A stretch of 64,000 nucleotides of DNA, taken from Tribonema minus (taxonomy: Eukaryota; Sar; Xanthophyceae; Tribonematales; Tribonemataceae). Where the stretch lies: assembly GCA_017506865.1 (NCBI GenBank), contig JAFCMP010000057.1, positions 806,001 through 870,000 on the forward strand. The letters are read 5' to 3'. The position numbers were made by a program, and so were the translations under genes. Each line of letters starts with the position of its first letter. Position 1 is the first letter of the stretch. The notes beneath the pieces were generated by a model. The model saw only the letters and a list, made by a program, of their open reading frames with translations, had not been told where the DNA came from and made no database searches. Shown here in pieces: positions 7,937 to 45,400 of this stretch.

Positions 7937-10900
7937 TGCCGCCGCAGCGCCGGGGCCGCGCGCCTTCCGCAGCGCCGCCGCGAGCGCCGCCGCCAGCTCG
8001 TCGCGCGCCGCCTGAGGCTCATCAGCGCTCAGCAACGCGGCGACGTAGCCGTCCGGCCGCACCAGCACCGCCCTGGCGCCAGCGCGCGCGAGAGCCGTGC
8101 GCAGCGCTCCGCCACTGTCCTGAGCACTGATGACGTTGAGGTCCGGCAGCGCCAGCTCCGACAGCAGCGCGCAGGGCACCGGCGGCGCGGCCGCCGCTGC
8201 TGCTGCTGGTGCTGCTGCCGATGAAGCCACCGCGCACAGCGCCACGGAGCCCTGGAGTGGCGAAACGCGCGTCTCGTCAGAAGTGACGTGTGTGACCCTG
8301 CGTGACGGGCTGGTGAGGTGACCCGGGCATTGGGCGCTTGTGCATGCACGTGGGTAGAATCTGACTGCAGACTTTGCAAAGCATTCTTTGTGAAAGGAAG
8401 ACCGTACCTGGTGGCCACATGTCTATGTTCACTTTTGGACGTTGACCTTGGGATGTGCGGGTATAAGTAGGGGTACAGTACTGACGCATGCTCTAGGCTC
8501 CCCCTCCAGCGCACGGGCAAACCGCAACAACACGTTCAGTGGAGCCTGTACGCACTTCTCATCAATTCTTGCTCAGGGCGCCAAAAACCCCAGATGTTTC
8601 ATCGGCAAGCTTGCTGTACAAGAACCTACACGCACCTCGTAATAACATATCTCAACAGGCACTGGCGATCACTTCAACTTGAAGTACACACGCACCTCCG
8701 CCGTCCCGCTGTGCGCGTGCGCCCCCTCCAGCACCCCCTTCCAGCCCTGCGTGCCCCCCCCTCCCGCGTCCCCGAGAGCAATCAACGCAAACGGCGCAGC
8801 GCGCGGCGGCGCACCCGCAGCGCTGAACGGCCCGCACGCCACCTGCGCCGCCAGGTCCACCGTGGAAAATGCGCGCCCGCCGCCGCCGCCGGCTGCTACT
8901 GTCAACGCAAAGTGCGGCATGCGCGCTCCGACGGCAATGTCCGTGAGACCCGGGTTGCGCGCTGCTGCCGCTGCCGCCGCCGCTGTGCCATCGGCAGCGG
9001 CGGCGGCGGCGGCGGAGGAGGCGGCGGAGGCATAGACGTAGCCAATGTCCTGGCGCGGAAAGTGCAGCGGCAGGCCGGCGCCGGAGGCCAGGACGACGCG
9101 CACCGCCGAGGCCAAGGCCTCCCCGTGGGGGTGCCCGGGCTCCTCTAGACAGCTGCGCGCGCGGGGGGGGGGGGGGGGGGGAGATTGATGCAGTGAGTCG
9201 TGACGGGTTTTTTTAAAACGGGGGCCGGTCAGATGGGGCTCAGTCTCATTCGAGCTGCTTTGAGATATGGCAGGGTGCGGCGGGGCTAGGGTCAGCGTGG
9301 GTGCTGCGCTGGCAGCATGGCGGCGGATGTGATGAGAAGTGAAGATACCGTGCGTCAAGCAGGACTTGGATTTCTTGAGTCGTGACTTCGCTCTGAGTCG
9401 TGAGTCGTGGCCCGGGTGGATCTTGATGTTACGGTATTGGGACGCACGCTACACCCACATCGCGCGTCTCCTGCTGCCTGCTGCTGCCAGATCGTCCTAG
9501 AAAGCGCGCGCTGCTTGCGCCGCGCCGCCGCATGTGTACCGTGTCTCTTCACTGCCGGTGCCCGCAAACGGCGAATCTGCGCGCGCCTGACGACGCAGAC
9601 GGGCGCCGGCCACCGTGCTGTGCACAGACGCACAAGCTCACACAATACTTCAAATAAGAACTTGAAGTGTACTGCCGCTGAGCGCTTGCCTCAGATGCCG
9701 CCGGCCGACGGCCATGGCCGCCTTGCCCGCCGCCCACGCCGCAGAGGACCCCGGATGGTCGGGTGACGCGCCGAGCAGCCGCGCCAGGGCTGCGGGCGCG
9801 TCCGGGTCAATGCCCAGCGCCTCCGCCACCTGCACAGCGAGAGCCATGGGCGCCGCAACTGGTCAGCAGCGCTTAACGAGCTCATTCATAAAGTTGGAGT
9901 TTAAGTTTAAGATGAAGTTGAAGATGGGCGGACAGCGCCCTCATGCGCAGCGTGTGTGGCCCATGGGCGCCGCAACTGGTCAGCAGCGCTCAGAGGTTGC
10001 CAATTTGAAGTTGTTGTTCAAGGTGATGTTGAAGCTGGACGTGAAGTTTGGGGTGATCGTCCTTTGGCGGATACACGCGCCCTAACAGCCGCACAATCGA
10101 TGTGGTTTGGAGGCACCATGCTGCTGAGTTGAGTTGAAGTTGAAGTCAAAATTGAAGATGATTGTCTCACGGCAGACACTGGGGCGCCTCATCAGCCGCA
10201 CATGCAATGTGGCTTGAGCCACAGCACGGGGGGGGGGGAGTCAGAATACGTACGCACCCCCAGGGCAACGCTGGTGCTCGGGCCCGCATTGCGGGGGGGT
10301 CAAAGTTGATCGAGCAGCGCTTCGGTTCGCGGCAGTGCTCTTGCCTTGGCGGCAACACGTACACGTAGCCTAGGGCAAGAACTAGGGCTATGAAGGCAGG
10401 CTCCCTGTCTCGCAACACAGGCAGCCATGCCTCGCGGGGTGTGTGCATGTGGGCTTTAAAGTTCAAACGTTGTGCAGCGCTCAGTCGAACGCTCAGTTGA
10501 CGCTGCAAGCCAAACGCACCGCTGACCTGACGGCATGAAGCAGTGCGGCATGGCCGCAATATCTGCAACCTTCGCATGCATTCTCAGCGGACCGATCGCG
10601 GTCAACCAGCGCAGATGTCTGTGGGTTTTGTGGGCCCTTCAAGCAGCGGAGAAGCGACCCGTGAGAAGGGGGCGTTGCAGAATTGCGCACACCGCAGCTG
10701 ATGCCCTCATACGAACCGCTACGCAGGCAGCATGTACTGCTGAAGTGGGCACATTCACTGCTGGCGACTGTGCACACGGTTGCGCCGTGCGCTCGTGGGT
10801 GTACTTGTGGCGTCCGCCTGTGAGTACACACATCCACTGCAAGCGTACACGTATACTCTCGAGCCGTACGCTGCGGCCGTCGCAAGCTCCGCGGCTGCGT

Positions 10901-13900
10901 ACAATCCATGCATCATCCGCTCTCACCGCCACACGACTATTGGGAATCATGAACACGTGCATGCAGCTTTGGTACCCTCCAGCAGCAACGTCTGCCGAAC
11001 TGCCCGTTTATTTAAGAGAGTGCATAACTCACCCGCAGGCTTCGACGCAGATTGAGCACTGACACAGCCGCGGTGCTGGCGGCGCACGGCCGCCGCTCGC
11101 TGCTGTACGTGCTGAGCAGCGCTGCGTCGGCGCGACCCTGCACCACCTCTGCAAGCTTCCACGCCAGATTGTGCGCGTCCTGGGTTGGGGGTAGGGATAG
11201 GGTGTGGGTGACGCGTAATATAATCGCTGGACTTCAGTGTATTGTAGTGACCTCCGGTGGGCTGTGCGCTGCAGGTGAGGTGCGGGCAAAGTGGTGATGC
11301 GCAAGCCCAGCCAACTCCGTGTCTGACGCCGCTGACGTGTATGCATACGCAGTGTCTTGATGCCAGGGGGCAGGTGGCTCGTGTCGCGTGTCCATCATGA
11401 TATGTGACCCGTACTGTTCGTCAGGGCCTGAACGCCTTTCCAGAAAGACGTTGTCAAGTATTCTGTCCGTGCAGTGCAGTGAGTGCCACTTGAAAGTTTC
11501 AACCAGCTGCCCCCCCCACCCCCCCCCCTCGTGCCTGCCCTTTGCAACTTCAAGGCAGACACATCTCATCCTGAGTGACGTTCCTTCATATCATGAGTAC
11601 GTTGTTGAACACTGCACCACTGTTGACACAAGGAGACTGCATCCGGCACCAAACTACGTGTGCCTGCGCACGCGTGCGCTGCGCGGTGACGACCAATGAC
11701 GGTGACCCATGGACCAACAAAATCTATTCATTTTATGGTGCTCTCTTCAACAGGGCGCGCGCAGCATCCGATTAGACTTGGCCCGTGCGTTGTCTCATCA
11801 ACACAAACGGTTGATTCCGCAACCAAATACACGGTCACAAGTTGCATGTGTTGTTGACAACATGGCGGACGGTGTGGCTGCCCGAACGCCAGATGCAGCA
11901 GTGGCTAACCCTAACTTTGACCCTAACCGTGACCCTAGCCGTAAACCTCAATCTGAACCTGAGGCATGTGATCCATGTGTGCTGCAATGCATACTTTGCC
12001 GAGCCCAGCACGGCAGTCAGAGCCACGCTTGCTCAGCGTCGGCCTTGTGCAGGACAGCTGAGCCATGATCGCACTACTAACCCTAATCCTAACCCTAAAA
12101 CGTAACCTGACCCTAACCCTATCTCGTCGCCCCGCAAGCAGCGCTCGTGGGTAGTACATGGCGGGCATCAGCACTGGTTTGCGCTTTCCAGGGAGTAATC
12201 GAGACAGCACACCACCAGAGACCCTCACCCGCCGTTTGCATGGCCAAAATACAGGTGCTGCGCGCATGCACGGCAGTGACCCCTCGGCTGCAAGTACAGA
12301 TGCGCAGTACCTGTGGTCATGCGCCAGTGTGCAGCCTAAGACAGGTGGCGGGTGAGTACAGCAGTGGATTCACAGCTGTACGCGTGTACCTGTATGCCCG
12401 CGTTCATGCCGAAGCCCCCAGAGGGGGGGAACTGGTGTGCCGCGTCGCCTGCCAGGAATACGCGCGGAACGGGCTGATAGCTGCGCGCTACCTGCGAGGA
12501 GCACCAGAAGCACACATTGTGGTAGCACAAATGCCCATGTATTTGGCGGGCCCTGTGACTCTGAGCTCTTGCTGCTGCTGCCGACCGGTTTCGCAACTGC
12601 GGATGGGGCACGCGAGCAAATCAGATTGCGCAACAACGTGTCTTGAAGTGAAGGGAGATGAGTGCGGTGACGGTGCCCAACGCCCCGCTACGTGCAGAAG
12701 AAGCGGTGATCATTTATGAGCTGTTGGGGTTGGGGTCAAGTAGGATGAGGGCTAGCGTTAGGGTTAGAAAGCCCGCGCACACAAATGGTTGCAACATGCT
12801 GGCTGCCTTCACGAGTCTGGCAATCTGCTGGTGTGCTCATAGGCAGCCTGTCTCTATAAGAGATTTGTGTGCCATGGAAGTGTGGGTTCTTTGTGAAGTT
12901 GCAGCACAACATCTTGACCGCGAGCCGATTGGAAGTCGCTGCTAAGCCCAACCCTAACCCTGACCCTAAACCTAACCCAAACCCTAGCACCACACTGCGC
13001 CCGCGCATGATGGTCGCGCCAAACGCGGCACCATCACACCACGTCACTAATAACCACGCGTCGAGACCGATGACCACGACGCATTCACACGATTATCGAA
13101 AAGTGCGGTGTTTTTCTGCAACGTAGAGGGTAGGCACGTAGATGAACACCTGTGCACCCATCGTCCACGGCCGCCCCGTAAAGTGGTATCATTTCATGTA
13201 AAGTATGATTTTATGTCATGTACGAGGTAGAGGGTAGGTAAGTATGAGCACCTGTGCGCCCATCGTCCATGGCCGCGCCGTGACGAGCTGTATGTGCGGC
13301 GCCTTTGCGCTGCCGGCCTGTACACCCAGCGCGTATCGCACCGTTTCTAGGGCTTTCTCCGGGGTGAACATCTGTGGCGCAGCGGATCGGTGAGAGGGAC
13401 TTAAGATGAGGCTAGGGCAAGGGTTAGCTCAAGACGCGACAGGGGCTGTGTGATATGCGTGTATGTAGCGCCTGCGTGGTGTTGCAGGTGTCACGGGCAT
13501 CAGTACATACGTAAGTAGTTTAGAACTTGCGCCTCTCGATGCTGGCGGAATGTCGAATCACAAGAATGATAGCGGTCGCGTACGAAATGGCAAGCACAAC
13601 ACGCAGCCTGACCAGGTGCGCCGCCGACGGCTCAACACAAGAACAGTCTCACTCACGTCGCTACTGCGTCGTATAAATACGCTTTGTACTGTATAATGTC
13701 CCACGCACTCACCTCCGTTTCAAATGATGGGAACAAAAGCGTGGGACATGCTCCCCGCGCATCGCCATCGCACAACGTTAGGGTGAGGATTAGGGTTAGC
13801 CGCGCGTACCTCCCCCCAGACCCTGCCCTAGCGACCCTAACTCAACTTCCGAGCTCAGTGTGTGTCCCCCCTACCTCCTTCATTTCGAACGGCGGGAAGA

Positions 13901-16900
13901 AGGGGACGTGGCATGCGTACTCCCCCCTCTCCACGTCATGCGTCGCGTGACCCTACCCCCTGCTGCTAACCCCGATCTCAGTTCTGGATAACCCTGGCCC
14001 TGATCCAAAACGCAAGCCCCGTCGCGACGATCGTTAGTGACTCACCTCCTTCCTCTCGAACGGCGGGAAGAAGGGGACGTGGCACGCGTACTCCCCCCTC
14101 TCCACGTCGTGCGCCACCATCACGCACACCACCTCCGGCCGGTACACAAAGTACAGCATGCCCGGCCGCCGCCCCTCGCGCTTCAGCCAGTCGCCGAGAT
14201 CTGGCGACGTGAAATGGATGTTGACCATGGAGCCGAGGCCCGCTTGACCGAGGATCTGGCCTGGGCCTGCAAGAGGTGGAAGTTGGCGCGTAGCTGATGA
14301 ATACATGGGGCGGATTTCCGGTGCGCTGACAAAAATGAGCAGCACTGACAAGCACAGGATGTTGACCACGGAGTCAAGGCCTGCTTGACTGAGGATCTGG
14401 CCCGGGCCTGCAAGTGGCGGAAGTTGGCGCGTATCTGATTGGTGCATAGGGTTTAGTACCGGTATGCTGGCAGGAAATGAGCAGCACTGACAAGCACGAG
14501 GATGTTCACCATTGAGCCATGATGACAGGCTTCGTTCGGCCGCCGACAGGCTGCCAGCATTATATATCATTAGTACGCTGACAGCTAATAGGGTGAAAGT
14601 TTGCTTGTTTCTCCGCGACTGCATCGCCATGTATGCGCTACAGCGAGCGTTGTTACAGTTAATGGTACTTCTATGACATTGCAGGAGATGAGCTACATAT
14701 GTGGAATGTTACAACTCGCCGCGACTGGTCGCTTCCCAGAACTCATTGTCACACATAGCACACAACACGTTTCTCAATGCTGATGCCGTAGACTCATCAC
14801 ATTTCTCGCAAGCGTGCCAGTGGGTACTGCGCACCATGCCGCCCAGACTGTGCCCATGGCAGCCACTAAGAAATGAAATTACTGGTGCTCGCACCCGCCC
14901 GCATGCGAGCATTGCGCCGCTGCGAGGGCGCGCGCGCCATCGCCGCTGTGGCCAGCTCTAATGCACACAGTGCGGTCGGAACCTCGGACGCATGCCAAGG
15001 GTTGGCGTCAGGATTACGTCATGTATTGCTAAGCACGCGCTGCAGCAGCAACTCGGCGCCGCACCCTCTCGCGACCCATCACGCGGAGGCACAGCAGGAT
15101 TACTGGTCTGACGTGCGGCGCCAGCTTCTCAGTGCTTCTCCCTTACACATTCATAGCACGCGTATTGTACTCGTGGCACTCCGGGCCAGTTTTTCTACCA
15201 GTGATACCAGTGCTTTTCCCTTACACGCCTTCTTCACTGCACGCGTAGTATACTCGTGGGATACTCAGCGCAAGCGCAGAGACGCACCGCCGGGGCCCCC
15301 GCCGCACGCGGTGCGCACGCTGCTGTGCGCGCCGTCTGCTGCTACCAGGTAGTCGCATAGCACCACCTCGCGCGCCCCCGTCGCCGCGTCCGCCACCGTC
15401 ACCGCAGGGCCCTGAGCACTGCTGCTGCGCGCCGCCTCCACGCTCGTCACGCGCTGGCCCATGCGCACTGCGTCTGCGCGCGCACGCGGAGCAGGGGGGG
15501 GACGGGGGAGGGGGGGGGGGGGGGGGGGCAGAGGGGGGGAGAGAGTGCGAGTTGGAATTGGGTGTGTATCTGTGCCAGTGGTTGGTTCAAAGCAGACTTC
15601 CAAGGATATGACATTCGAAAACAATCAAATTCCATGAAAATGTCACCGGCACACGCGATTGTAGTAGAACTGCCACTTGACATGGTGCTGAGATGGACTT
15701 CAAAGTACAAATGATAATGTGTTGGGTACTGCCATGCATATATATACATACCCTCAGGTTCTGCGCCCATCCTCTTGGCAGACTCCCGCGCCTCCTCCAG
15801 CAGAATAGGCAGCAGGCGGTTTTGTGACAGATGACACACTGCCGACGGCGTCAAGCCCTTGTACGGATCTGTGCAGGGTACATGATGACAGTCGCGGCGC
15901 GCGGTTGAAGATGGCATATATACATGCACACTGTTTGAACAGTGTGTACAGCTGTGTAGACTATGAGATGGCGAGTGTATGCCATTTGCATTTCTTCGTG
16001 CTGCGAATTCAGCGGCTGTGAGCATTGCTCGTGCAGCCATGCAGACATAGAACCGACACAGACTGAGCAGCACCGGACGAATGCAAAATATGAAATGCTC
16101 GGAAACTCAGATAAGATACCATATGAGCACTGACGACGCAGGCGATGAGGACTCGCAATAGTCTCTGTTTGTGCGTCACAGGCAGCGCATGGTGTTTGCA
16201 GCTGTTTGCATAGCACTGTGGGGCAATGCTCAGAAATTGACGGCAGTGCTGATCGGTGTGGGGGAGCAGCAGGATTCAGGCTTCATTGTTCGCAGTGCAT
16301 GTAGACAATCGCATGGGCTTACCATTCTTGAAGTTGTCAACGCGCGCCAGCTCTCGCCCGAGCACCGATGAGCAGACCACGAAATCACTAAAAAAACAAG
16401 GGAACAAGTAAGAGGCGGCATGAGCTTGAAAACACCATCAGTGCCATGCCCTCGCAATGGAGACGATGGCTGGTTGTGCGGGTGATGGTTTACCGTCCGT
16501 TTACCAGCAGGGGTGCTGTTCAAATGCTGCTCGACCAGCAGGAGCATTAAGTTTTGTATGTCAGCGGCCACATCAGTTGCGTGCAGCACATCAAATTGAC
16601 ACTAAAAACATGCCGCATCTTTGCAACTTCAAGTACTTGGTGCAGGAACTTCTGTGAGAAATTGACATCCGCCTGACTCACTCACAGCCGAATCTGGCTC
16701 AACATTATATGCCAGTTATGGATCCTGCCTCACCTCCACTGCGCTTTGGGAGGAGACGCTGCAAACACGCTCTTGTCCAAGCCTCCCAGGCAGTGTCTGA
16801 ATATCTCCATGCTCCTGAGGTTGATGAAGTGAGCCTGCGGGTGATCACTAAGATCCTGCTCCTTCTCCAGCAGCACGCTCTGCACGCCAGCCCGCGACAG

Positions 16901-17026
16901 CAGTGCGCTTAGAGTAAGCCCAGTGGGACCTGCTCCGCAGATGACCACCGGGATCCGCCTGCTCATGGTCATGTGTCGCCGTGACGAGACCCCCCCTTTC
17001 AAAACGCGTGCTAGCCTGCGCTGCAT
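7892..17026 (-). CDS. FAD-dependent aromatic-ring monooxygenase (phenol 2-monooxygenase/UbiH-like)
   Basis: Exons in coding order: 17026-16734, 16387-16323, 15868-15752, 15473-15288, 14266-14046, 13371-13252, 12491-12390, 11179-11033, one unresolved, 9858-9690, 9152-8696 and 8251-7892. Phases match at all other joins. Landmarks are the N-terminal FAD-binding GAGPTG (residues 31-36), HFINLRSMEIFR, the FAD motif YLVAADGAHSSVR, RPWTMGAQ, the second nucleotide-binding motif VFLAGDAAHQFPPSGGFGMN, DAHNLAWKLA with YSSERRP, and a C-terminal thioredoxin-like fold ending AVLVRPDGYVAA. The family hydroxylates phenolic or quinone-type substrates with NAD(P)H and O2; the substrate here is unknown. The protein exceeds 745 residues, long for the family because of Ala/Gln-rich inserts. 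The intron after 9690 has a GC donor. Several exon ends are tandemly duplicated (see repeats). Confidence 0.9.
9841..9995 (-). repeat. Duplicated exon start in the monooxygenase gene
   Basis: The block at 9845-9875, which holds the acceptor and first codons of exon 9858-9690, recurs at 9961-9992, about 116 bp upstream in transcript sense. Both copies share CATGGGCGCCGCAACTGG. Only the 9858 copy continues into an open exon. Confidence 0.7.
11890..12988 (+). repeat. Interstitial telomere-like CCCTAA clusters
   Basis: Degenerate CCCTAA/CCCTGA runs occur at about 11897-11945, 12077-12122 and 12947-12987, inside monooxygenase introns. Comparable clusters are at 13777-13799, 31519-31592, 36702-36730, 38582-38620, 41086-41225 and 63137-63168. 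The unit is TTAGGG with frequent single-base variants, and orientation varies. Confidence 0.7.
13126..13300 (-). repeat. Duplicated exon end encoding RPWTMGAQ plus splice donor
   Basis: Exon 13371-13252 ends RPWTMGAQ followed by GTGCTC. About 100 bp downstream in the transcript a second copy again encodes RPWTMGAQ followed by GTGTTC. The flanking TAGAGGGTAGG is also shared. The second copy lacks the preceding 30 codons. Confidence 0.75.
13700..14110 (-). repeat. Three graded copies of a monooxygenase exon end
   Basis: Exon 14266-14046 ends with HVPFFPPFERKE plus a GTGAGT donor. A second copy at about 13876-13935 encodes HVPFFPPFEMKE plus GTAGGG. A third, more diverged copy at 13690-13760 encodes LLFPSFETE plus GTGAGT. 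Divergence grows with distance from the real exon. Confidence 0.75.
14218..14520 (-). repeat. Tandem copies of the acceptor side of exon 14266-14046
   Basis: The segment with the polypyrimidine stretch, AG acceptor and codons GPGQILGQAG at 14218-14300 is repeated at 14359-14435, and in part at 14500-14520. The period is about 140 bp. The second copy still has a usable AG acceptor. Confidence 0.75.
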
Positions 17027-18556: not shown

Positions 18557-18594
<38 letters not shown>

Positions 18595-35300: not shown

Positions 35301-36317
35301 TAATTCAACAGTTAATTGGAACTTATCGCTGGCTTTGCAACAAGTCTGGCTGCTGCGCCGCCACATCATGCAGCCGCGCTCAGCAATCACCACATACGTA
35401 ACTGCCGCGCAGGCGTCGCGCGGCGCGCAGCGCGAGAGCGCCGGCGGCCGCGTGCATATGCCGCCGCTTGACATCGATGGTGATGATGACAGCGACGGCG
35501 GCGGCGGCGGCGCGCTGCAGCGCGACAGGCACATTGGTGACCGCATTCCGCCAATAGGCGACGGCACACCACGCGAGCTAAGGTGAGGTGACAGATGATG
35601 TTAATTAGAGCTGGAACATTATCTGCTGTAATTGCATACGTTACCAGATGAGCTTTATGTCCTGTCATCGACCAGCGCGTATTTGCTGCGTTTTCACCCG
35701 GGCTGCGCATGCAACCCTCTGCCGCCCCTGCTCGGTGAAGTCAAAGACATCATGCGGCGCGCTGGCTATGCCCACCTCATGCGTACCATGCAACATCCCT
35801 CACGACACTGACCCGTGACGCAAGACCGCTCAATATGGGCCACCTTCTGAAAATCTCTGCCGAGTTACACATGACAAGCAAAGTGCTCGTGATTGTGATG
35901 TATCGTGTACGGACAGCTTCTGCCCGCTTTCACAACACAATTCAGAGGCTCAGGCAGTGGGCGCCTTGCTGATGCTCATCTCCGCACCTGGCCCTGTACC
36001 CCAATCACCCAGGTCAAGTCACAGTCACCCCCTTTCACCCCTGGCCAGAGCTTCACAACACCCCCTGCTGCTCGCTGCCACCTAATTCGTCCCTGCAGGG
36101 AGCTCTCCGAGTCGGAGCCGCGGCATGCGCGCGCCGGCAGCAGACCCGCCACATGCCAGTCTCACACTGACGGCAGCGGCGGCGGCGGCGGCAGCAGCAG
36201 ACCTTCCACGCAGCAGCGCTCATCTCGGTCCGGCAGCAGGCCGGCATCGCGCGCGCAGCCGCTGCTGCCCGCCAGGGCGTCCGCGGTGGTGTCGACCATC
36301 GCGGCGGCGCTGGCGGC

Positions 36318-36351
<34 letters not shown>

Positions 36352-39300
36352 GGCGGTTCCGCCAATGCGGAGGACCTCATCAGGTGCCAGAGAGTGCTTG
36401 TTTGTGGGATGGGGGCTTTAGGGGTAGAGGAGCAGGTTGCCCTTGCCGTTGCCCTGATGCTTGTGTGTCCTAACTACGTTTTTCAAACGAGGACAGAGGT
36501 AGGGCCGTGGTCATAAGTGAAGGCTCAGCTATCCCGGGATACTGGTGACCGTTGCAGCGTACTATCACGGGATCAGGGTTCATGTGTGATGCACGAATAG
36601 CTTTCATGCATTCATACAGCCGCACTGAAGAGCGAGCACCTGTCAGTTGCTGGTCCGAAGACAGCAGTTTACCTGGCTGTGCGCAACTGCCCTAACTCCA
36701 GCCCAAACCCTAACCCTCACCCTAATCCTGCCCCCGCTCATGGCGGCTTGCGCAAAGCCAGCTCGCATTGGATGGCGCGCGTAGTCACATCATGACTCAA
36801 GTGAGAGAGACCAAAACGTCCGGCCAGACTGTACCACAGGCCACCGCTCGTGATCCTGCTGCGCCTGTTTGAGCAAATGCTGCTGTGGCATTCACGCCTC
36901 GCGCCATTGCTGCACGCCGCGTCATCGCATGCATGGCATGCAAGGCACAGAGTTGATCTGCTGCAGTCAGCTCCCTTTCGCGGGATGGACGGTTGTCGCA
37001 GCAGCCATATGCCGCCTGCGTCCCCACCCCGTCTGCTTCTGAGCACTGACGTGGCTTGCTAAGCCACGCCGCGCTCACTCTACCAACCTTACCCCTCACC
37101 TCACATGCCAATCTGAGTCCCAAGTAGCCCTAGTCCTGACCCTAAGCCACCTGTGCACTACCCCACGCGCACCCGCAGATTGCTGCTGCGGCTGCTGCTT
37201 ATTTCTGACATTCACCCTGACATTGTCCGTGGCACTTACCCCTAGCCTGACTCTAACACCATTTGCAACCCCGACCCTGTCAACTGACCAGGCTGGGGCT
37301 GGGCCTCGGGATGGCCCTGAAAGAGGAGGGCTTCTTGGATGACAACGAGAGTGACGAGCGCCACTTGCCACACACGCCAGAGCGACGACGACATAGCGCA
37401 CACGCTGATGACCGAGGCTTGAAGGTAGAGGAAGTTGGCCCTATAGACGAGTACATCAATGATGCAGCTGATGAAATAACTCCGAGAGTGCTTTTACACG
37501 AGCCGTGTACATCATTGCCTTTGATGAGCTCCAGACTCAAGGGGCGGAGGGTGTTAGACCTTTCCTCGTGTGCTTCGATTGTTCGGGGCGTACAAATGCA
37601 GTTCAGAACGTATGTTTGAGCCATATCATCACGTTCAATATGTACGCTGTACAGTAGGTGGTCACAAGTTCAGTTTTGCGGTGGTCAGTTTTTAAGTACG
37701 ACACTGCATATGCGAAGGTGCCGTCTTGGGCACCGAGACATACACAGGCCCAGGCTCTGTGCGAAGGATGCTCACAGGCGGAAAAAGATGGGGTTCGTGC
37801 ATAAAATTGATGGCTGCCATCAATGTAATAGCAGGCAGCACTGGACTGTTGCCAAGAGGTGCCAGCAGCCAATGTATTGAACCAATTGATGAGCACTTGA
37901 ACGCTCTCAAGCAGCCGCTTCTCCCCCCCCCCCCCCCCCCACACACACACACCACTCTCACCCTGTTGCTGTACATCATATGCCACGATGGTACTGTAGG
38001 GCCGTCCGATTCATGCATCGAGTCTGTAATGAGCTACGCACGCGCTAATAAGCACCATTTTGTCACTGTCACTGAGACATGCTCGCTGAGCACTTCGCAG
38101 AGGCTCAGAGACGCACGCAGCACCTGCCTCCACAAGCAGCGAGTGCAAATACACGTCATTCAACGACCTCTCTTCTCACAACTGCCTGACACCTTGCTAC
38201 GCTGCGCGGCTTGCTCACTTGCAGGCGGGGGACACCCTGGATCCGTATGAAGCTGCGTTGGGAGCCGTGAGCACCCTGGGGGCACCCCGCCCCCCTCCCC
38301 CTGCGCCCCCGGGCCAGCAGCCGATCGGGTATGGCCAGGCAGTGCCCAACGACTCCAGTGAAGACCGACTCGTCCTGGACCACTCTGCGGAGCAGGTATG
38401 CATGCATGTAGGTACATGGTGTATACCACATGTATGTTCACAGCAGACGCGTTTGCTGTGGCAGCGCTCGGAGAGCTCTATTGGGGGCTTCGAATAAAAG
38501 TCAAGTCTTCAAGTACAATACTGCAGTGTAACAATGTGCACGCCATGCGCAGCTCGCAGGCAGCGCAGAGATCCTCTTAGGTAAGGGTGAGGGTTATCCC
38601 TAACCCTAGTCCTAGCCCAAAATCAGACCGCCGCCACAAGTCGCAGTGCATGTGCTTGGTGGCGGCTAGGCGCAGGCTTTACCCAAGGGAATAACCAAAT
38701 TGTTTTCGAATCCGGCTAGCAGCACCCACATGCGCATCAATGTTCAATGCTTCAGGTGCCGGAACCTGAATGCCCGTGAGTGCTCTGCAGAAACCACAGT
38801 GCCTACGTCGCTCCCCTCTCACACCCATAATTGAGAGCTGGTGCCTGGGGCAAGGGTTCGATGCGAGGCGCAGGCATGGGTGAGGCTAGGGTTTGTGGTC
38901 ATTCTCATCACCGCTCAGCATAATCATCCGCCCATCAACGCCCCTGCAAACACCGCGCCACAGGCACAGCGCGAGGTGCTCGCCACCACAAAGCATCAGT
39001 AACAGGTGCAGCAAGCGGGTCATGAGTGTCAGGGCCCGAACACGCCCGGTCTGCACGCTGCAACACCACATTGCCAGCACCGTGACCCTTCTCACACCCA
39101 ATCCCTCAGATTTAGGGTTGGCAATCATCAGCTCAGGGGTACTGCAAGGGTTGCTGGGGCCATCAGCGCTCAACGCCACCTATATCTAATATCATACCAA
39201 TCAACATCAACTGCCGCACCATGCATTCGCGCGCCGCAGGCCCAGCGCGAGGCGCTCGCGACCCTTCCCACACCCGATTTTTAGATTTAGGGCTGGCAGT

Positions 39301-42160
39301 CATCAGCTCAGGGGCACGGCTGAGGTTACGGTAACGATTGTCGGCGCCATCAACGCTCAACACCATCAACTGCCCATCACAACTCCGCAAATCTCAGGCC
39401 CAACGAGAGGCGCTTGCCACCCAGAGCGGCGCGCTGCAGACGTCCCAGGCCTTCCGCGGCCTCGTGGTCGTCGGCAGCAGGGGCGACCCCGCTGTCGACG
39501 CCGGCAGCACTGCTCAGCAGGAAGACAACGGCTCGGCAGAGGAGGCGGAGGTTGCCCTCTCGGCGCCGCCAGATGAGGATGACGGCCAGGCAGCAGCTAT
39601 GGAAGAGGAACTGGATCCCAGGTGAAGTTGAAGTTCAAGTTGACGCACCCTGCTGCGGAAGCGCGTGATGGGTGTACCGTCTCCCCCCCGAGGCAGTGTG
39701 TCCCTTGCGGTGCAGCGAGAGGGGAAGCGGCACGTAATACGCCTATGTACGGTATCTGATTTCTGCTGCCACACATGGAGCATGCAGGTGCAGCCAGCAA
39801 AGCCACTTGTCAATGCTCTGCACACAAAGAAAAGTGTGCATTTCTGCAGGTGAAGATCAGAGTTTGCATGGGGGGGGGGGGGGGGGCGGGGCACACGGAC
39901 ATTGTTGTCGTTTTGGCCTCAGGCATAGGATGCCCCTGCATTAATGATGCATTACCATGATGCTGCACACACCAAGTGTGCTGCACGCAACTCACCACCC
40001 ACATGTATGTACTCTGGAGGTACACGGGGAATCGTCACAAGAGCACACAAGCATCGAACCACGCTGCGACCATGTATAGATTACGGTGGCGAGCTTCATG
40101 CCAATTATCCGGATTGTGCTTTGCGCCCACAGCGACAACTTACATTGAGTGCTGTAAACTTCATTGACTGTCGGCTTGCGTTGACCGCTTCCATATGTTG
40201 AACTTTGTGCCCCTGCAACAGGCGCAAAGTGCAGCTGCAGACGCCCGTTGTGGCCTACCCCGAGGCCCTCTGGAACCACGAGTACCTCATGCACCCTGCT
40301 GCTGGCGAAGGCGTCAGCTGGAGCAAGGCCAGGGGGCACTCCGCCGGGGCAAGCGGGGGGGCGAAACCCCTCATCCGTCGCTCACGAGAGGCAAGCCTTT
40401 CAAACCGCCCAGAGCTACATGAAGCAACGTGGCAGTCATAATATCCACAGTAGCCTCTTGCAGGACTGCCGTGCTTGCTCCATCAGCGCGCATGCTGATG
40501 CACCCGACTGGCAACATACAGTGCCATGGTGTTTTTCTGCAGCCAGGGCCGCCAGGTTGGAACAGGCGCGCAGCACGTTTTAGGCAGCAACAAGGAAGCC
40601 ATCACCGAAGTGCGTGCAGCTCAGACTGTGTGCCGAAGCATGCAGCAGCGCCATATACACAACATGGAACGCCATAGACACAACTGTGGAACTCCAAGTG
40701 CGCCACCACAAGAGTCGTAGTCAAAACGACTCTTGTTTGAAGTGCTGCAAGACCTGTAGCCTGCGTCAACGGCAAACGGTCAATGGCCGTAACCGCTGTG
40801 TCCAAGTGAGCGCAGCTCTGCAAGCGCCCCTCGGTGACACGCCATAATGAACGCTGGCAACCGCTGCAACAGAGCTCGTGTGCGTCTGTGTGTGCCCTAC
40901 TTCCAAGGTCCTTGCTTCCATCGATGAATGAGTCACAAGCCCTGCGCATTAACAGCGACACGCTCTCATTATTCCGCGCCGCTGCAGCCGCTGCCGGAGG
41001 GATTCCTCAAGGCCATCGCGCACACGCACGTCGCCACACAGACGGCCGACTACCTGCCGTCCGTGCCCAACCTCCCGCAAGCCAGGTCAGGGTTAGTGTG
41101 TAGCTAGGGTCAGAGTTCGGGTAAGGTTAGGGTACGGCTGAGTCCCAACCTCCCCCAAGCCAGGTCAGGATTGGGATGGACCAGGCTTAGCGTTAGGGTT
41201 AGGGAAAGGGCTAGGGTTAGGGTACAGCTGAGCCTGGTGCGCATCTCCCCGTGGAAGCTGCTGATTTGTTTTGCGGCAGCGCTGACTCTCACAACGGTGC
41301 ATGCAGCGGCTGCTGCTGCCGCGCGTTGCTCCACGCCGCGGCTCGCGCCCGTTGCGCTGTAGTGGCGCGCTCAGTGCCTGTAAGGCCGCCACGTGCAACA
41401 CATAGGGTTCTGCAGATGACCTGAGGAATTGCAGGTGACGATGCTGCTTCTTCTTCGGTGCAGGTTGCGATGGCTCGTGCCAGGCTGTACGTGCAAGGTC
41501 AGCTCCGGTGCTGAGCATCTCATGACAGTAGTTGGGTATGCTGGTATAGGTACATGTGGGGGCAGCTGTGGAGCGCTGCTGCTTGCGCCTGCTCGTAGCG
41601 GGGAGTTGCGACCACAGCTGATGCTTGCGTAGGTGAAGGCACACAATGTTGTGGGACGCTCACACAAGTTGCTTGGCAGAACCCACTCTACCGAAGTAAA
41701 GTTGCACCAGCGGCATGCCACAGCATAAAGTACAAAAATGGAACCTCCTTTGCCCGCCTAGAGGCTGCACATTGAACAGAGAGCCAGTGGCACATCAGAT
41801 TGCTGTCAGGCGCACTGACATGGTCAAATGATGCCTCGTTCATCTCAATTCATGAAAACGGGTCAAAAAGTATGTTGCGAAGGCATGCGCGGGCAGCTAC
41901 ATTGTCTCGGCACCGTTGGTCGCATCTCAAGAAAGCCAGTTCGAACGCCATGGTGTAACGGCATGCATGCGCAGCATCATTGCATAGGCGCCCCTCGTTG
42001 CTTCTCATGTCTGCTTTTCTGCGCCTGCATCGCGCTGTGCAGACCCGTCGGCCGTGTCAAGTCGCGCTCTGCCGCCGCAGACTGGATGGCCGTCGGCTTT
42101 GATCCGTGGAGCGCGGGCAGGCAAGACAGTGCTCAGCAGCCCATGGTGCCGTTGTCGTGA
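17264..42160 (+). CDS. Very large IQ/WW-domain protein, about 27 exons (whole gene)
   Basis: This is one gene of nearly 25 kb. It starts at ATG 17264 (context CCAGATGG) and ends at TGA 42158-42160, with AATAAA 99 bp later. Identified exons sum to about 4.6 kb, or over 1,500 residues. The order is a short N-terminal helix-rich region, an Arg/Ala-rich coiled segment with an IQ motif, WW domain 1, a Gly/Ala linker, a Cys-rich motif, a conserved-looking central region, WW domain 2, and a long low-complexity C-terminal region. Donor and acceptor phases agree at all but two places (about 22.9-23.3 kb and 28.4-30.2 kb), where an exon is probably missing. IQ motifs bind calmodulin and WW domains bind Pro-rich ligands, so a scaffold or cytoskeletal role is possible. 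I do not recognise the protein. Four entries below give the parts. Confidence 0.8.
18554..18602 (+). repeat. Short (CTG)n tract in an intron
   Basis: About 16 CTG units with one GTG interruption lie inside the 18084-19032 intron of the IQ/WW gene. The overlapping poly-Ala and poly-Cys frames are not supported as exons, since exons 17950-18083 and 19033-19215 join in phase without them. Confidence 0.8.
19876..20240 (+). repeat. Partial upstream copy of the WW exon start
   Basis: At about 19904-19955 the intron contains a diverged copy of the start of exon 20191-20340: an AG acceptor followed by codons reading VASAEWLEVCDGAT. The real exon reads AASAEWLEVRDGAT. The copy stops before the second half of the WW domain and has no donor, so it is a dead duplicate. 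Confidence 0.75.
21896..22010 (+). repeat. Duplicated acceptor region before exon 21998
   Basis: The pyrimidine tract, CCCCCCAG acceptor and next bases at about 21918-21962 are repeated about 45 bp later as the functional acceptor at 21991-21997. Both copies share ATACCCTG...CCCCCTAA...CCCCCAG and then GAACAT or GGACATGCTG. Confidence 0.7.
21998..28385 (+). CDS. IQ/WW gene, part 2: linker, Cys-rich motif and central region
   Basis: Exons: 21998-22140, 23338-23476, 24359-24644, 25077-25507, 25928-26127, 26421-26649, 27622-27765 and 28254-28385. A short exon near 22919 may lie between the first two, since the phases require one. Exon 25077-25507 is Gly/Ala-rich and contains CFNCWSAGKSGGCALH, about 35 residues of Gly linker, and then CRNWDLGALRRRHRAEELYE. 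The spacing CxxC-x8-C-xx-H plus CRNW looks like a small metal-binding or structural Cys motif. Exon 25928-26127 continues in phase with IFKQEACSLKFDPVKRG and HPIYRLLQRLVEGG. Exon 27622-27765 (ILVTLEDGRRLIV) looks like beta strands. I recall similar Cys/IQ/WW arrangements in oomycete and apicomplexan hypothetical proteins but cannot verify this. Confidence 0.8.
22060..22915 (+). repeat. Five tandem copies of an exon end with its splice donor
   Basis: The last part of exon 21998-22140 (encoding TARRRALRLVSNQEDR, then GTGAGT) is followed by four further copies, ending near 22315, 22456, 22638 and 22796. Units run about 140-185 bp. Each repeats the exon end, GGAGGACAG and most keep GTGxxTCA, and the following intron with the word ACTTGAAGT. 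The copies differ by substitutions, indicating an old array. Splicing from any of several donors would add or drop about 20 codons or shift frame. Confidence 0.85.
23470..23960 (+). repeat. Duplicated donor-proximal intron segment
   Basis: After exon 23338-23476, the segment starting ACGTAGGTATGAGGC recurs near 23668. The later motif, lowercase text 'tggaacaa' followed by 'cctagccctaa', recurs near 23595-23645 and 23890-23955. This implies a roughly 190-300 bp tandem duplication that begins at the exon edge. Confidence 0.6.
26626..26887 (+). repeat. 52-bp minisatellite seeded by an exon end
   Basis: Exon 26421-26649 ends LEELRGIAQ plus GTATGG. The 52-bp stretch covering these codons, the donor and the next 28 bp is repeated to give five units of 52-54 bp (GAGGAGCTGCGCGGCAT... 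...CAGCGCTCAGCA). Units 2-5 lie in the intron. The donor position reads GTA, TTG, ATA and ATA in the later units, so most have lost GT. Confidence 0.85.
30188..32480 (+). CDS. IQ/WW gene, part 3: conserved central region and WW domain 2
   Basis: Exons: 30188-30391, 31027-31123, 31346-31441 and 32352-32480. The first reads DLSHGFRTAVSVPVFPP, then ARCFTPSADVATANQC and RVDRTYPFCEP. It joins in phase to NRCNTTLDFYHLLLTADC, PNLAQAFINLGHQ, and then ESGEFMRASDPTKPMGQC. These read like a globular domain with several Cys, but I cannot name it. Exon 32352-32480 carries WW domain 2: EEYRTDDGVPYWFDRRTGET, then FWERP. The intron after 31123 starts with GC (CAG|GCAAGC). The start of exon 30188 needs a phase-2 predecessor. 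A possible extra exon at 28995-29158 (GYLQGFMRHYG) would satisfy that but is unproven. Confidence 0.75.
32438..32962 (+). repeat. Four copies of an exon end after WW domain 2
   Basis: The end of exon 32352-32480 (DEEKVSVKAGGTIL plus GTGAGA) is repeated at about 32568-32617, 32705-32755 and 32919-32967. The donors read GTGAGA, GTAAGC and GTGAGC. Spacing is about 130, 137 and 215 bp. The fourth copy has a stop in the homologous frame (GTCTAA). The intervening intron sequence (ATATGCCG...CATTTGTTC...CCTGCGC) is duplicated as well. Confidence 0.85.
33550..33985 (+). repeat. Three copies of an exon start before 33928
   Basis: The acceptor and first codons of exon 33928-34065 (TCAG|GATGGGCGCGGCGAAGC) have an upstream copy at 33782-33826 with its own CATCAG acceptor and with the same preceding GCTTAACGGCTT/GCTCAATGGCTC and ATGTCCTGC context. 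A third partial copy at 33555-33602 matches the codons for HGRDAATARYDQADV. Confidence 0.75.
33928..42160 (+). CDS. IQ/WW gene, part 4: long C-terminal region
   Basis: Exons: 33928-34065, 34625-34747, 35413-35582, 36099-36383, 37292-37424, 38225-38395, 39398-39621, 40222-40390, 40988-41085 and 42043-42160. All joins are in phase (phase 2 at 35582, 36383, 39621 and 41085, the rest phase 0). Sequence is mostly low complexity. It has a Gly/Ser-rich segment (36099-36383), an acidic and Arg/His segment (EEGFLDDNESDERHLP), a Pro-rich run (GAPRPPPPAPPG) that could itself be a WW ligand, and an acidic stretch (APPDEDDGQAAAMEEELDP). A more ordered piece reads RRKVQLQTPVVAYPEALWNH. The intron after 40390 uses a GC donor (GAG|GCAAGC). 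The terminal exon ends QQPMVPLS and a TGA. The function is unknown; it may be an intrinsically disordered tail. Confidence 0.78.
38950..39412 (+). repeat. Three copies of an exon start before 39398
   Basis: The acceptor and first codons of exon 39398-39621 (CAG|GCCCAACGAGAGGCGCT) have earlier copies at about 38962 (CAGGCACAGCGCGAGGTGCT) and 39238 (CAGGCCCAGCGCGAGGCGCT). The upstream intron context, including TCATCAGCTCAGGGG and CCATCAACGCTCAAC, is also repeated. All three copies keep an AG acceptor. Confidence 0.75.
41069..41180 (+). repeat. Two copies of an exon end (VPNLPQAR)
   Basis: Exon 40988-41085 ends with codons for VPNLPQAR and GTCAGG. A second copy at about 41142-41165 reads CCCAACCTCCCCCAAGCCAG followed by GTCAGG, 74 bp later. 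The spacer is telomere-like (GTTAGGG)-type sequence. Confidence 0.75.
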
Positions 42161-42380
42161 CACAGCATTAGACTACCATTTTAACTCGCTGATGCATATA
42201 GGTGGACAGTGGGGCATGCCTGTGTCTGCAGAAGAAGCGTAAACGTCTAAGACAGACAAATAAACCAGTGCTCAGCAGCCTCTCAATGCCATTGCTCTCA
42301 TGGGGCGTGATCAGGGCGACAAACACGCTCATGGGTCGAAGGGGGGGGCACGCCTGAATCTGCAGGAGAAGCATAAGTGC
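42124..42380 (+). repeat. Duplicated terminal exon end of the IQ/WW gene
   Basis: The last codons and stop (42127-42160) and the following 80 bp match 42266-42378. Shared words include CAGTGCTCAGCAGCC, GCCGTTGTC versus GCCATTGCTC, and CTGCAGRAGAAGC near 42229 and 42361. The polyadenylation signal sits between the two copies. Confidence 0.65.
42259..42264 (+). promoter_or_regulatory. AATAAA polyadenylation signal, IQ/WW gene
   Basis: AATAAA lies 99 bp after the TGA of the terminal exon, on the coding strand. It supports 42160 as the true end of the gene. Confidence 0.6.
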
Positions 42381-42846
42381 CAGAGACGTGGATACGTGTT
42401 CTTGCGGTGCGCTTCAAAGCACGCCGAGAAGCTGGCGCATGTATGCACGGCAAGCACGGCACCGACACAATGTAACTCTCGCAGCAATACTCCTTTGTTA
42501 CCACCGTGTACAAGGCGCGCTTTGTTACCAAGGTCTGCACCAATGGTGCTTTGCCTGCTTGACTCTTGTCATCTTGTGGAAGCACTGATACTGCTGGCTT
42601 TGATTCCTTGTGCTGCTTGAGGCGACCCCGTTCAACACACCCAGTTAATGCACTTCAAGAGTATGCCGCACCATTGAAGGGATGGGTCTGATGCTAGCCG
42701 TACTGCAACAAAACCAGAACCACATGCGCACGTGCGCCGCAGGTAGGACATGAGAAGGCAGCTGGCTGGTTATATGCGTTACCATGCCTGCATGCAGACA
42801 CTGTCCAGGCGCGCAGACACCGCCCGCTCCCTGCAAAGACTCTGAA
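42381..42846. other. Intergenic region before the ankyrin gene
   Basis: No gene is recognised. It must hold the 5' end of the ankyrin gene. An ATG at 42682 with a donor at 42743 is possible as an upstream exon, but its phase does not fit, so I start the gene at 42847. Confidence 0.4.
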
Positions 42847-45170
42847 ATGGCAGCCATGTGTGTAGTGCCTTCTTTCACAAAGCACTTTGTTAAAATGCAC
42901 GTGCCAAGTTCTGCTTCAGATGAGTTTGAAGTGCTGACCCGTATCCGCAATGCCTCCCTATCTTCCTATTTGCTCAGGGAGCCCCTGAGCGCTGAATTCA
43001 TCTCATCGCTCGCCATCAAGGCCAGCGATCTAGTCGGCGACGAGGGCGCGCTGGTGCCGCAGGTACGTATGTCGTCGTGATACTCAACATACCCCGGGCT
43101 GCACTTGTGAATGAGCTGGCAAGCCCGCCTGACGCCGCGCAATGCTTGCGCCCGTCACACTGGCGAGCTGAACTTTCAACACTTTGAAGTAGGCTGTTTC
43201 GCAAGTCATCTCATGCCAGGATGAGTGTTGTTTCGAGCCCCATAGCAGATGCCAGGCACCACCGAGTGCAGCTGCGCTCGTGGTCACGTCTGGCAGACGA
43301 CAACCGTGCGCATCGCACCGAACCTTTGCATCAGCGACGTCCGCACGCGCCAGCGCGCATGCGCACCTCAGTCATCAAAACAATATGCCACAAGTCGCAC
43401 AACAGAGCAGCGACGATGACCACAGCGGTGCTCACTTTCCGTGCCACAACGAGTCCTCTCGTCTCATGTTTTCCACTTCGCTGGCTTCATCTCTCCTGAC
43501 GTCGTTGTGCAGGCGGCCGGATTGTCAGCCGCCGGCAGCTACGCAGAGTCCAAGGACGAGACCGGCCACCAGGAGCTGGCGGTGCAGGCTGCGGAGGACT
43601 CCAAGCTGGCGCAAGACTTCAGGATGCTCTGCAGCTGGGCGAGGTGCGTTTGTTTGTGTGCCACATGCGTACACGCATCCCGTGCCACGTAGCTCCTGTA
43701 GAGAGGGGAGGCCCCTGCTTGAAAAGGGGGCGCGTTCAGTGGTCGGGAGCAATGTCGCCTGTGTGCCTTTTGGCTTTTCATTCCGTGCCCGCCGAGCATG
43801 GTTTAACCTATTTGATCAACTACAGTACTTCAGTCTCACACATCGGCGGAGTGCCCCGCTTTTGCAGGGACTGTGTGCCGGGGTTTGCTTTCAGACTTGC
43901 TATCTTGCAAACGCAGGCACTGAGGATACCCGCGGCCGTCAAGGATGCATGCAATGTTTGTACCTCAGTATAAAAAAAGATGCAGTGGCTAATGGCGCGC
44001 AGGCAAGGCGAGCGACGCGTCCGTTGCCTGCCATTTAGTCAACCTCATCACTGCTGCGCTAGATCCAACACCTTATTGATGCAATGCCGCCGTTTGCCGT
44101 GCTGCAGGCATGGGAGGTTTGCGGATGTGGACAACGCCATGTCTCAGAGCGACTGGGTCATGCCAATTGACTACCAGAACGAGACCGGACAGGCAAGTCT
44201 TACCTGTACATAGTGCAACCCGAGATGAATGTGCAGCGTCCAAGTAGAGGAGCACAGCTGCTGTCGCGTTTGTGCGCCTGTGTTCCCTGCGTTAGCCTCA
44301 CTGGACGACCACACCAACAGTAGTTTTTTTTTGCAAGCATACTAAAGATCCTCTGGTCTGCCTTAAGTTGTCCAACACGAGACCGCACAGGCAAGCGCTA
44401 ATCATAGTGTAAATTGGGGTGAATGTGCAGCAGGCATATTGTAGATGCCGTTGTGAAGTTGTCACCGCCGCAAGACAGCCAAGTGGCTGCACTGTGCCCA
44501 AGATGCCACTTGCCAGGTTTGTGCAAAGGATCTGGACACCAACAAATGACCTGATTAATGCAAAGGTCATGCTGATAGCATCAGGTGTAGCCTGGCAGTA
44601 TGTGTCCAGAAGCTTGACCTGTGAACTCTTGCTGCAGCGGCTGCGGGTGACACAATGTTGCAGCGACTTGCATAGTTGGTCACGAGGCAGTACTACACTT
44701 GAAACATTATACTTGCGAAATCTATGATTTCACCAGCACCTCAAAACAGAACACATGATAACAGCAGCTGCCAAATTGACTGCCTTTACCATAGCTGATG
44801 CCTCGACACCACAATGCTTGGGGTTTGCATGCTACATACCCCCCCACAGATGCTGAGCCATGCTGCTGTCACCACATAGCACTGAACACGCCCCTGTTCC
44901 CGTAACTTCACTTCTCGCGTCGCGCAGACGCTCCTCCACGTCGCGGCGCAGAACGGCAACAAGCGCATCGCCAAGCTGTGCCTGCGGCGTGGCGCCAACA
45001 TCAACGTCCAGAACTTCAACGGCCAGACGCCGCTGCACTACGCGTTCGGCTACGGCTTCGAGTCGCTGGGCCAGTACCTCATCAGCAAGGGCGCGCGCGA
45101 CGATGTCCTCAACAAGGACGGCCTGACGTGCTACGAGGGGCTGAGCGCAGAGGAGCTGAGCAAGCTGTGA
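42847..45170 (+). CDS. Small ankyrin-repeat protein
   Basis: Exons: 42847-43062, 43513-43643, 44108-44192 and 44928-45170, in phase throughout and giving 224 residues. The frame is also open back to an ATG at 42784, which would add 21 residues. The N-terminal half has no recognisable domain (EPLSAEFISSLAIKASDLVG). It contains the segment SWARHGRFADVDNAM, a degenerate first ankyrin repeat. The C-terminal half has clear ankyrin repeats: GQTLLHVAAQNGNKRIAKLC, NGQTPLHYAFGYGFESLGQY and then a capping repeat with KDGLTCYEGLS. Ankyrin repeats bind other proteins; the partner is unknown. The intron after 44192 has a GC donor (CAG|GCAAGT). Ends of exons 3 and 4 are duplicated downstream. The stop is TGA at 45168. 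Confidence 0.85.
44170..44425 (+). repeat. Duplicated exon end retaining a GC donor
   Basis: The end of exon 44108-44192 (ACGAGACCGGACAG|GCAAGT) has a copy about 195 bp later at 44378-44392 (ACGAGACCGCACAG followed by GCAAGC). The following intron words, TACATAGTG/AATCATAGTG and GATGAATGTGCAGC/GGTGAATGTGCAGC, are also duplicated. The non-canonical donor is kept in both. Confidence 0.75.
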
Positions 45171-45400
45171 TGACGCGCGCTGGCAGTTACAGTGCTGGCG
45201 GTTACGACACTGACAGGTTTACGCGCGCGCGACAACGTCCCCAACAAGGACGGCCGGACGTGCCACGAGGAGCTGAGCAAGCTGTGACAAGCGCCAGCAG
45301 TTGCAGCGCTGGCACTTACAGCGCTGACAGTTACACACGTCATGGGCTGAGCGCTAAGGCGCTGAGCACGCTGTGACGCACGCAGGCAGTTACAGCGCCG
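45120..45400 (+). repeat. Tandem copies of the ankyrin terminal exon end and stop codon
   Basis: The terminal sequence AACAAGGACGGCC...GAGGAGCTGAGCAAGCTGTGA (45110-45170) recurs at 45239-45287, with the stop kept. A shorter remnant lies near 45345-45376 (GCTGAGCACGCTGTGA). The spacers share the lowercase words 'ggcagttaca' and 'ttacgcgcgcgcgac'. Confidence 0.7.

What the first reader, a model, noticed from the sequence alone, without database searches (positions are those of the whole stretch)
9841..45400. Pervasive tandem duplication of exon ends together with their splice sites
At least fifteen exon borders in three unrelated genes (monooxygenase, IQ/WW gene, ankyrin gene) carry one to four extra copies of the exon edge, its donor or acceptor, and adjoining intron. 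Examples start at 9.85, 13.15, 13.7, 14.2, 19.9, 21.9, 22.1, 23.5, 26.6, 32.4, 33.6, 39.0, 41.07, 42.13, 44.18 and 45.1 kb. Both donor and acceptor sides are affected, and stop-codon ends too. Copies decay with distance from the real exon. A repeated mechanism that targets exon-intron borders is implied, and it would continually create alternative splice sites and pseudo-exons. I know of no named system that does this.
Basis: partly seen in the sequence, partly recalled or inferred. Interest (0 to 1): 0.9.

Follow-up and report, generated by a model that had tools for sequence, protein, structure and literature searches.

The report
Duplicated exon edges in alga introns
The genes of the yellow-green alga Tribonema minus are strewn with short side-by-side DNA duplications, many of which copy an exon's edge and its splice site into the neighbouring intron; the pattern is real and widespread, but it looks like a common duplication process filtered by selection rather than a machine aimed at splice sites.

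Summary
Of 71 splice borders placed in the window, 12 have an exon-edge copy in the adjoining intron, as does one of two stop-codon ends. It is not a local oddity: in 20 random 10-kb pieces of the same genome, 94 of 324 predicted exon edges have such a copy.

Best-supported explanation: recurrent tandem duplication of mostly 80-200 bp units inside genes. Units inside exons are purged; units in introns or across borders survive; exon halves stay recognisable longer because the real exon is constrained. Copies drift as neutral sequence would (mismatch 6.4/6.3/13.7% by codon position), and the two published proteins skip them.

Targeting of borders is not established. Duplications also fill introns. 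A border excess of about two-fold in ancestral coordinates (95% CI 1.2-3.0) becomes 1.5-1.8 with intervals spanning 1 in the youngest events. Surprising leftovers: almost no such duplications in predicted intergenic DNA of random loci (1 of 2211 points), and some gene regions have none at borders.

The parts
9654..16972 (-). FAD-binding monooxygenase gene (T. minus P0001), host of the repeats near 9.85, 13.15, 13.9 and 14.4 kb
   Evidence: protein spliced with HMM exons matches P0001 at 96% over 100%; PF01494 E 8.7e-61; exons by tblastn
17264..45170 (+).
   Evidence: Pfam WW and Ank
9844..9990 (-). 30-bp perfect repeat (9844-9873 and 9961-9990) in the intron next to the acceptor at 9829; exon edge not included
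13123..13281 (-). Copy of the donor edge of exon 13252-13374 (30 bp exon + 25 bp intron, 86%, offset 104)
13873..14113 (-). Copy of the donor edge of exon 14046-14266 (68 bp exon + 2 bp intron, 94%, offset 171)
14216..14519 (-). Copy of the acceptor edge of exon 14046-14266 (offset 141)
19890..20230 (+). Weak copy of the start of the WW exon (real start 20191), 16 aa at 81%
21916..22007 (+). 44-bp unit x 2.1 reaching the acceptor at 21998
22061..22938 (+). Real donor edge (22140) plus four copies ending at 22313, 22454, 22640, 22794, each followed by GT
23479..23719 (+). Intron next to the donor 23476 repeated once (54 bp, offset 187); no exon included
26626..26890 (+). Donor edge (26649) in an array of 52-bp units, about 5 copies
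32436..32976 (+). Donor edge (32480) plus three copies (offsets 133, 268, 480)
   Evidence: only itself found in the genome
33782..33959 (+). Copy of acceptor edge of exon 33928-34065 (32 bp exon + 4 bp intron, 97%, offset 142)
38954..39422 (+). Two copies of the acceptor edge of exon 39396-39622 (offsets 158 and 434), weak
41066..41232 (+). Weak copy of donor edge 41085 (offset 78)
45091..45407 (+). Two copies of the stop-codon end (real stop at 45168-45170)

Best explanation
Genes of Tribonema minus suffer frequent local tandem duplications of mostly 80-200 bp units (median about 130 bp). SHOWN in the sampled DNA: they are local, occur within introns and across exon borders, are rare in exon interiors and in predicted intergenic DNA, and form arrays of several copies in some gene regions while others have none at borders. 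SHOWN: exon-edge copies differ from the real edge as expected for one free-drifting copy and one constrained exon. INFERRED: the survival pattern is a filter. A unit inside an exon breaks the protein; a unit in an intron, or one running from an exon edge into the intron or past the stop codon, leaves one intact edge that can still be used. Because the real exon is constrained, a border-spanning copy diverges at roughly half the rate of an intron-intron copy and stays recognisable longer, so exon edges stand out. INFERRED, weaker: once a border copy exists, its preserved similarity helps further unequal exchange or slippage, which would explain the multi-copy arrays. NOT SHOWN: the molecular lesion; fill-in and end joining of paired nicks, replication slippage or transcription-linked damage are candidates.
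For: Local only: intron and edge 40-mers score >=20 against their own flanks at rates of 0.085-0.223 by position, but 0.000 against flanks of other loci (n 222-256 per position); a search with 32436-32980 returned only itself. Neutral copies: mismatch by codon position 90/1408, 88/1406, 191/1397 over 103 copies; 5 stop codons; N/S 1.14 against 2.60 for random mutation. Half-rate divergence: 22 alignments spanning both parts, exon mismatch 0.103, intron 0.182, exon lower in 16 of 22; border events at intron identity >=0.80, exon 0.919, intron 0.847. Border coverage 0.083 against introns 0.087-0.112 at 30-500 bp and exon middles 0.007; predicted intergenic 1 of 2211 points in random loci. Copies lie on the intron side in 43 of 50 border cases. 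The two annotated proteins skip the copies. Arrays over-dispersed: P(>=2 copies | >=1) 0.55 against 0.22-0.36 for Poisson.
Against: A roughly two-fold border excess remains (1.98, CI 1.22-3.01). Event coverage of introns falls from 0.107-0.112 at 60-300 bp to 0.043 at 500-800 bp and 0.035 beyond, so density is not flat over all loci. Near-identical exon-edge copies (>=32 of 40) outnumber near-identical intron copies 6.6-fold (CI 4.4-10.9). Neutral simulation gives about 1.6-2.4 at every threshold with indel rates like those in the alignments, and 3-10 if introns are assumed to change faster, but again flat across thresholds, unlike the observed rise from 1.7 to 6.6; the rise fits only if very young events are rare, as the event list suggests (7 at intron identity >=0.90, 21 at >=0.85, 56 at >=0.80). 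35 of 102 exon-edge copies, including 12 of the 31 with exon identity >=0.95, do not beat all controls in the adjoining intron, which needs extra intron rearrangement. Gap events are about six-fold rarer in exon parts than intron parts (0.0049 against 0.0320 per bp) where two-fold is expected. Borders in random loci rest on my own gene-finding HMM, without RNA.
Confidence: 0.68

Rival explanations
1. A process tied to exon borders (splicing, RNA polymerase pausing, R-loops or nucleosome edges at exon ends) makes tandem duplications there preferentially.
For: Border:intron event ratio about 2 in ancestral coordinates; window ratio 2.8 (6 events, 5 at a border); excess of near-identical edge copies; high-identity blocks stop within 12 bp past the splice site at 19 of 41 edges; event coverage lower beyond 500 bp from exons.
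Against: Introns within 500 bp are covered as often as borders, and in copy-rich loci local copies stay dense to 1500 bp; ratio not distinguishable from 1 in the youngest events; a stop-codon end behaves alike; shifted borders scored 2.3-2.7 in the test that first suggested targeting.
Confidence: 0.2
2. The copies are functional: alternative or decoy exons kept by selection.
For: Exon-edge parts are better conserved than adjoining intron, also between two copies; most copies keep GT/GC or AG; the HMM calls several as in-frame mini-exons.
Against: Codon-position pattern is that of a neutral copy; in long copy-copy alignments the exon part is not much better kept (15.6% against 19.5% mismatch over 186 and 149 columns); GT/GC is lost in 13 of 53 donor copies; the two annotated proteins skip the copies.
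Confidence: 0.07
3. Mobile introns or transposons (introners, target-site duplications) leave the repeats.
For: The last ~130 bp of the 22-kb array have diverged matches at 16 of the 19 other places found in the genome.
Against: No cross-locus similarity of intron or edge 40-mers at score >=20 in the sample; 32436-32980 found only itself; repeats contain gene-specific exon sequence.
Confidence: 0.03
4. Assembly artefact.
For: None seen; raw reads not available.
Against: Copies differ by many substitutions with a codon-position signature, and the pattern recurs in random contigs.
Confidence: 0.02

Closest known systems
[quoted passage not shown] potato RdRp case of Ma et al. 2016, PMC4974935, of which I saw passages)
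   Same: A tandem duplication carries splice signals and flanking exon; the potato case duplicates an intron-exon structure, and the paper also notes an 83-bp tandem duplication within an intron.
   Different: Known as single cases that make a new intron in the protein's path. Here the copies sit inside existing introns, the annotated proteins skip them, and they occur at a sizeable share of sampled borders.
Tandem duplications from end joining of breaks with overhangs / paired nicks (Schimmel et al. 2017, PMC5730883, passages seen; Schiml 2016 cited there, not read)
   Same: Makes short direct tandem duplications; repeated rounds give multiple copies.
   Different: Shown with designed nicks 46 nt apart in HPRT; no lesion is identified here, and units here are mostly 80-200 bp.
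Introners (Gozashti et al. 2022, PMC9860276; start of abstract in the listing and a term search without a hit for Tribonema)
   Same: Genome-scale reshaping of introns and splice sites.
   Different: Introners are dispersed families; these copies are local and gene-specific.
Tandem exon duplication / mutually exclusive exons (recalled)
   Same: Exon sequence repeated next to itself in a gene.
   Different: Mostly exon edges are copied, with neutral drift rather than coding constraint.

Membership tests
[quoted passage not shown]
   in the window; in random loci
[quoted passage not shown]
   P0121 and P0001 use the real edges and the copies lie inside existing introns; tested on these two gene models only, no RNA reads
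Introner family | Many similar copies dispersed over unrelated genes | tested here: not met
   0.000 cross-locus matches at score >=20; 32436-32980 found only itself; but the end of 22061-22940 is dispersed
Mutually exclusive / cassette tandem exons | Copies conserved as coding sequence | tested here: not met
   codon-position mismatches 6.4/6.3/13.7% and 5 stop codons over 103 copies
Mutually exclusive / cassette tandem exons | Copies spliced into messages | not testable with these tools
   no RNA reads
Paired-nick end-joining tandem duplications | Junctions with little or no microhomology | not tested
   few events young enough to place junctions (7 at intron identity >=0.90)
   ratio 1.01 (0.64-1.68) by present-day points; 1.98 (1.22-3.01) by ancestral units, 1.55 (0.49-3.63) in younger events

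The most novel reading that the evidence does not exclude
In Tribonema minus a transcription- or splicing-linked process makes roughly 130-bp tandem duplications inside transcribed introns and at exon borders of certain genes, about twice as often across a splice border as within an intron. It leaves intergenic DNA almost untouched and continually supplies duplicate splice sites and pseudo-exons.
Probability: 0.2. Interest if true: 0.8.

Novelty: new variant of a known kind. Interest (0 to 1): 0.5.

Why it matters
In several of the sampled gene regions a large fraction of exon edges carry spare copies with usable-looking splice sites. That makes this alga a natural test bed for how new exons, new introns and alternative splice sites arise without transposons, and for whether transcription or splicing shapes where duplications form. 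The near-confinement to genes and the on/off difference between gene regions are open questions that long-read DNA and RNA could settle.

Tried and rejected
Border targeting by shift and placement tests: (borders in duplicated DNA; pseudo-exons inflated it), then. Without restriction by distance, searches counted 27-42 border events at intron identity >=0.75-0.80 against 9-14 expected; one search gave similar excesses with stricter rules. In one search the real borders scored 3.2 times expectation at >=0.80, but borders moved outward by 150, 250 and 400 bp scored 4.0, 2.7 and 2.3, so the excess is not border-specific as it stands; an intron point can lie in either copy, which inflates the shifted control. 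Searches count it two ways and differ by a factor of two; both are reported.

Selection on copies: suggested by exon parts outliving intron parts; set aside because of the codon-position pattern and the half-rate expectation, though gap rates and the share without intron similarity fit imperfectly. Exon-only copying with ends at splice sites: kept within the first rival, since 67 of 102 copies do show intron similarity. Simulations: see evidence against.

Dropped rows: the eight WD40 loci L001-L008 served for HMM training but not for the tests; exons under 25, 40, 50 or 60 bp, depending on the call, were left out; pseudo-exons were collapsed (260 to 191, a rule that over-merged and seems to have lost the L012 exon 6982-7180; 313 to 283); low-complexity and telomere-like segments were skipped; overlapping events were reduced to one. 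'Active' loci were chosen after seeing their copies.

Literature: nine searches showed no paper describing this in Tribonema; one search listed 20 of 39 papers and all 9. The species' genome paper was not among those listed. A term search in the Ectocarpus transposon paper PMC12477816 (12 of 27 places shown) gave nothing on it; it says tandem repeats there are spread rather evenly.

Full report
WHAT IT IS IN. The window is C57:806001-870000 of a 158-Mb, 554-contig genome. Splicing the minus-strand exons at 9.7-17.0 kb gives a protein 96% identical over its length to a Tribonema minus FAD-binding protein on a contig of 1503033 bases, which is the length of C57. Tribonema minus is a yellow-green alga, Xanthophyceae.

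CHECK OF THE OBSERVATION. With 71 splice borders placed by hand (66 of them in the annotated proteins or P0002), 12 have an exon-edge copy at score >=16 (7 at >=20), and one of two stop-codon ends has two. Both donor and acceptor sides are affected. Decay with distance is not seen. The annotated protein goes from the real edge at 22140 to 23338 and from 32480 to 33928, passing over the copies.

IS IT GENOME-WIDE. I drew 120 random positions and obtained 20 of them, later 6 more. A small hidden Markov gene finder, seeded with exons read in the window and trained on the window and L001-L028, found 356 exons, acceptor consensus GCAG|G, and 67 GC donors among 342. It missed some real exons (compare), so borders in random loci are predictions. 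Of 324 exon edges in the 20 random loci, 94 have an outward copy; in the window 14 of 129; reversed-sequence null 4 of 453. In the six held-out loci with the model frozen the edge rates are 0.098 and 0.131 at >=20 against 0.07-0.08 in nearby intron, and 0.082 and 0.049 against 0.017-0.018 at >=32. Copies are local: no match at >=20 to flanks of other loci.

HOW COPIES AGE. Over 103 copies, mismatches to the real edge are 6.4, 6.3 and 13.7% at codon positions 1, 2 and 3. That is the signature of one free-drifting copy and one constrained exon. In 22 alignments that span the border, the exon part differs by 0.103 and the intron part by 0.182. This roughly half-rate divergence makes exon edges visible for longer. 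It does not explain everything: 35 of 102 edge copies do not beat all controls in the adjoining intron, high-identity blocks end within 12 bp of the splice site at 19 of 41 edges, and near-identical edge copies are 6.6 times as common as near-identical intron copies, where constant-birth decay predicts about 2, or a higher but threshold-independent figure if introns change faster. A shortage of very young events, seen in the event list, closes much of that gap.

IS THE BORDER TARGETED. In copy-rich loci local-copy density is 0.15-0.27 from 0 to 1500 bp into introns. My first event tests gave about three-fold border enrichment, but borders shifted 250-400 bp into introns gave 2.3-2.7 in the same test. 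Counting present-day points over all random loci at intron identity >=0.80, border coverage is 0.083, intron coverage 0.087-0.112 at 30-500 bp, 0.043 at 500-800 bp and 0.035 beyond; border to intron 200-800 bp is 1.01 (0.64-1.68). That count is generous to introns, because an intron point may lie in either copy and a real border in only one. Counting each ancestral unit once and applying the same completeness rule to intron columns, the ratio is 2.01 (1.34-2.81) at >=0.75, 1.98 (1.22-3.01) at >=0.80, 1.55 (0.49-3.63) at >=0.85 and 1.83 (0.45-5.01) at >=0.88. So a mild excess is possible; strong targeting is not shown.

WHERE DUPLICATIONS ARE MISSING. Exon middles are covered 0.007 of the time and predicted intergenic points 1 of 2211 in random loci (996 of them from one locus, L010). 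By 40-mers at >=20 the random intergenic figure is 2 of 495, both in L010. The window is an exception: 5 of 86 intergenic 40-mers and 14 of 389 points at identity >=0.75, 0 of 389 at >=0.80; some of these probably lie just past the stop codon, where one search shows the highest rates. The first gap is expected from selection. The second is not, and hints at a link to transcription, but it rests on predicted labels. Loci differ: L025, L026, L029 and L030 have no copies in border segments, while L011, L017 and L027 have them in more than half. GC content does not explain this (Spearman 0.21, p 0.30).

ARRAYS. In ten copy-rich loci, 66 of 171 real edges have a copy, and 55% of those have two or more, against 22-36% expected from Poisson. 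Either rates differ strongly among edges or an existing copy promotes more. Units have a median of 126-132 bp.

WHAT IT RESEMBLES. Tandem genomic duplication across an intron-exon junction is known from single genes as a route to new introns (PMC4974935, passages). End joining of breaks with overhangs makes tandem duplications in mouse cells, and the paper links the same to findings in Arabidopsis and human cells (PMC5730883, passages). Introners are dispersed and do not fit (PMC9860276, start of abstract and term search). Here the kind is known, but the density, the near-restriction to genes and the repeated involvement of exon edges appear new; none of my nine literature searches listed a description.

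VERDICT. Real, widespread and worth recording; the mechanism most likely an unselective tandem duplication process acting in genes plus a selection filter; splice-border targeting possible, on this evidence only as a mild bias.

Noticed in passing
window 14046-14266 and 13873-13942: P0002, a near-identical transcript-derived protein from an unnamed eukprot source, ends ...FETKEVGGHSEV, reading past the donor here; its intron start resembles the T. minus copy (gtagggggg) rather than the T. minus real edge (gtgagtcac). It may show the unduplicated ancestral edge.
   Followed up: partly
window 15753-15869: An exon (PYKGLTP...AEPE) present in P0002 but missing from the annotated T. minus protein P0001.
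   Followed up: partly
G000 sample, predicted donors: About one in five predicted introns starts with GC (67 of 342), and acceptors have a strong GCAG|G consensus.
   Followed up: no
window 22811-22940: The last ~130 bp of the 22-kb array match 16 of the 19 other genome places found, at 73-92% identity, so a dispersed repeat lies there.
   Followed up: no
window 12942-12986 and 31519-31591: Degenerate telomere-like tandem tracts (CTAACC, TAGGGT units) within the two genes' introns.
   Followed up: no
window 56905-57451: Minus-strand open frame with coding repeats, ankyrin-like by eye, a different thing from the exon-edge copies.
   Followed up: no
window 54320-54390: tRNA gene on the minus strand.
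   Followed up: no
L018:3423-4523: Six acceptors in a row, five of them copies, each with AG and about 50 bp of exon start.
   Followed up: partly
L012:6706-7664: Both edges of one predicted exon, WD-repeat-like by eye, copied independently into the two flanking introns, two copies each.
   Followed up: yes
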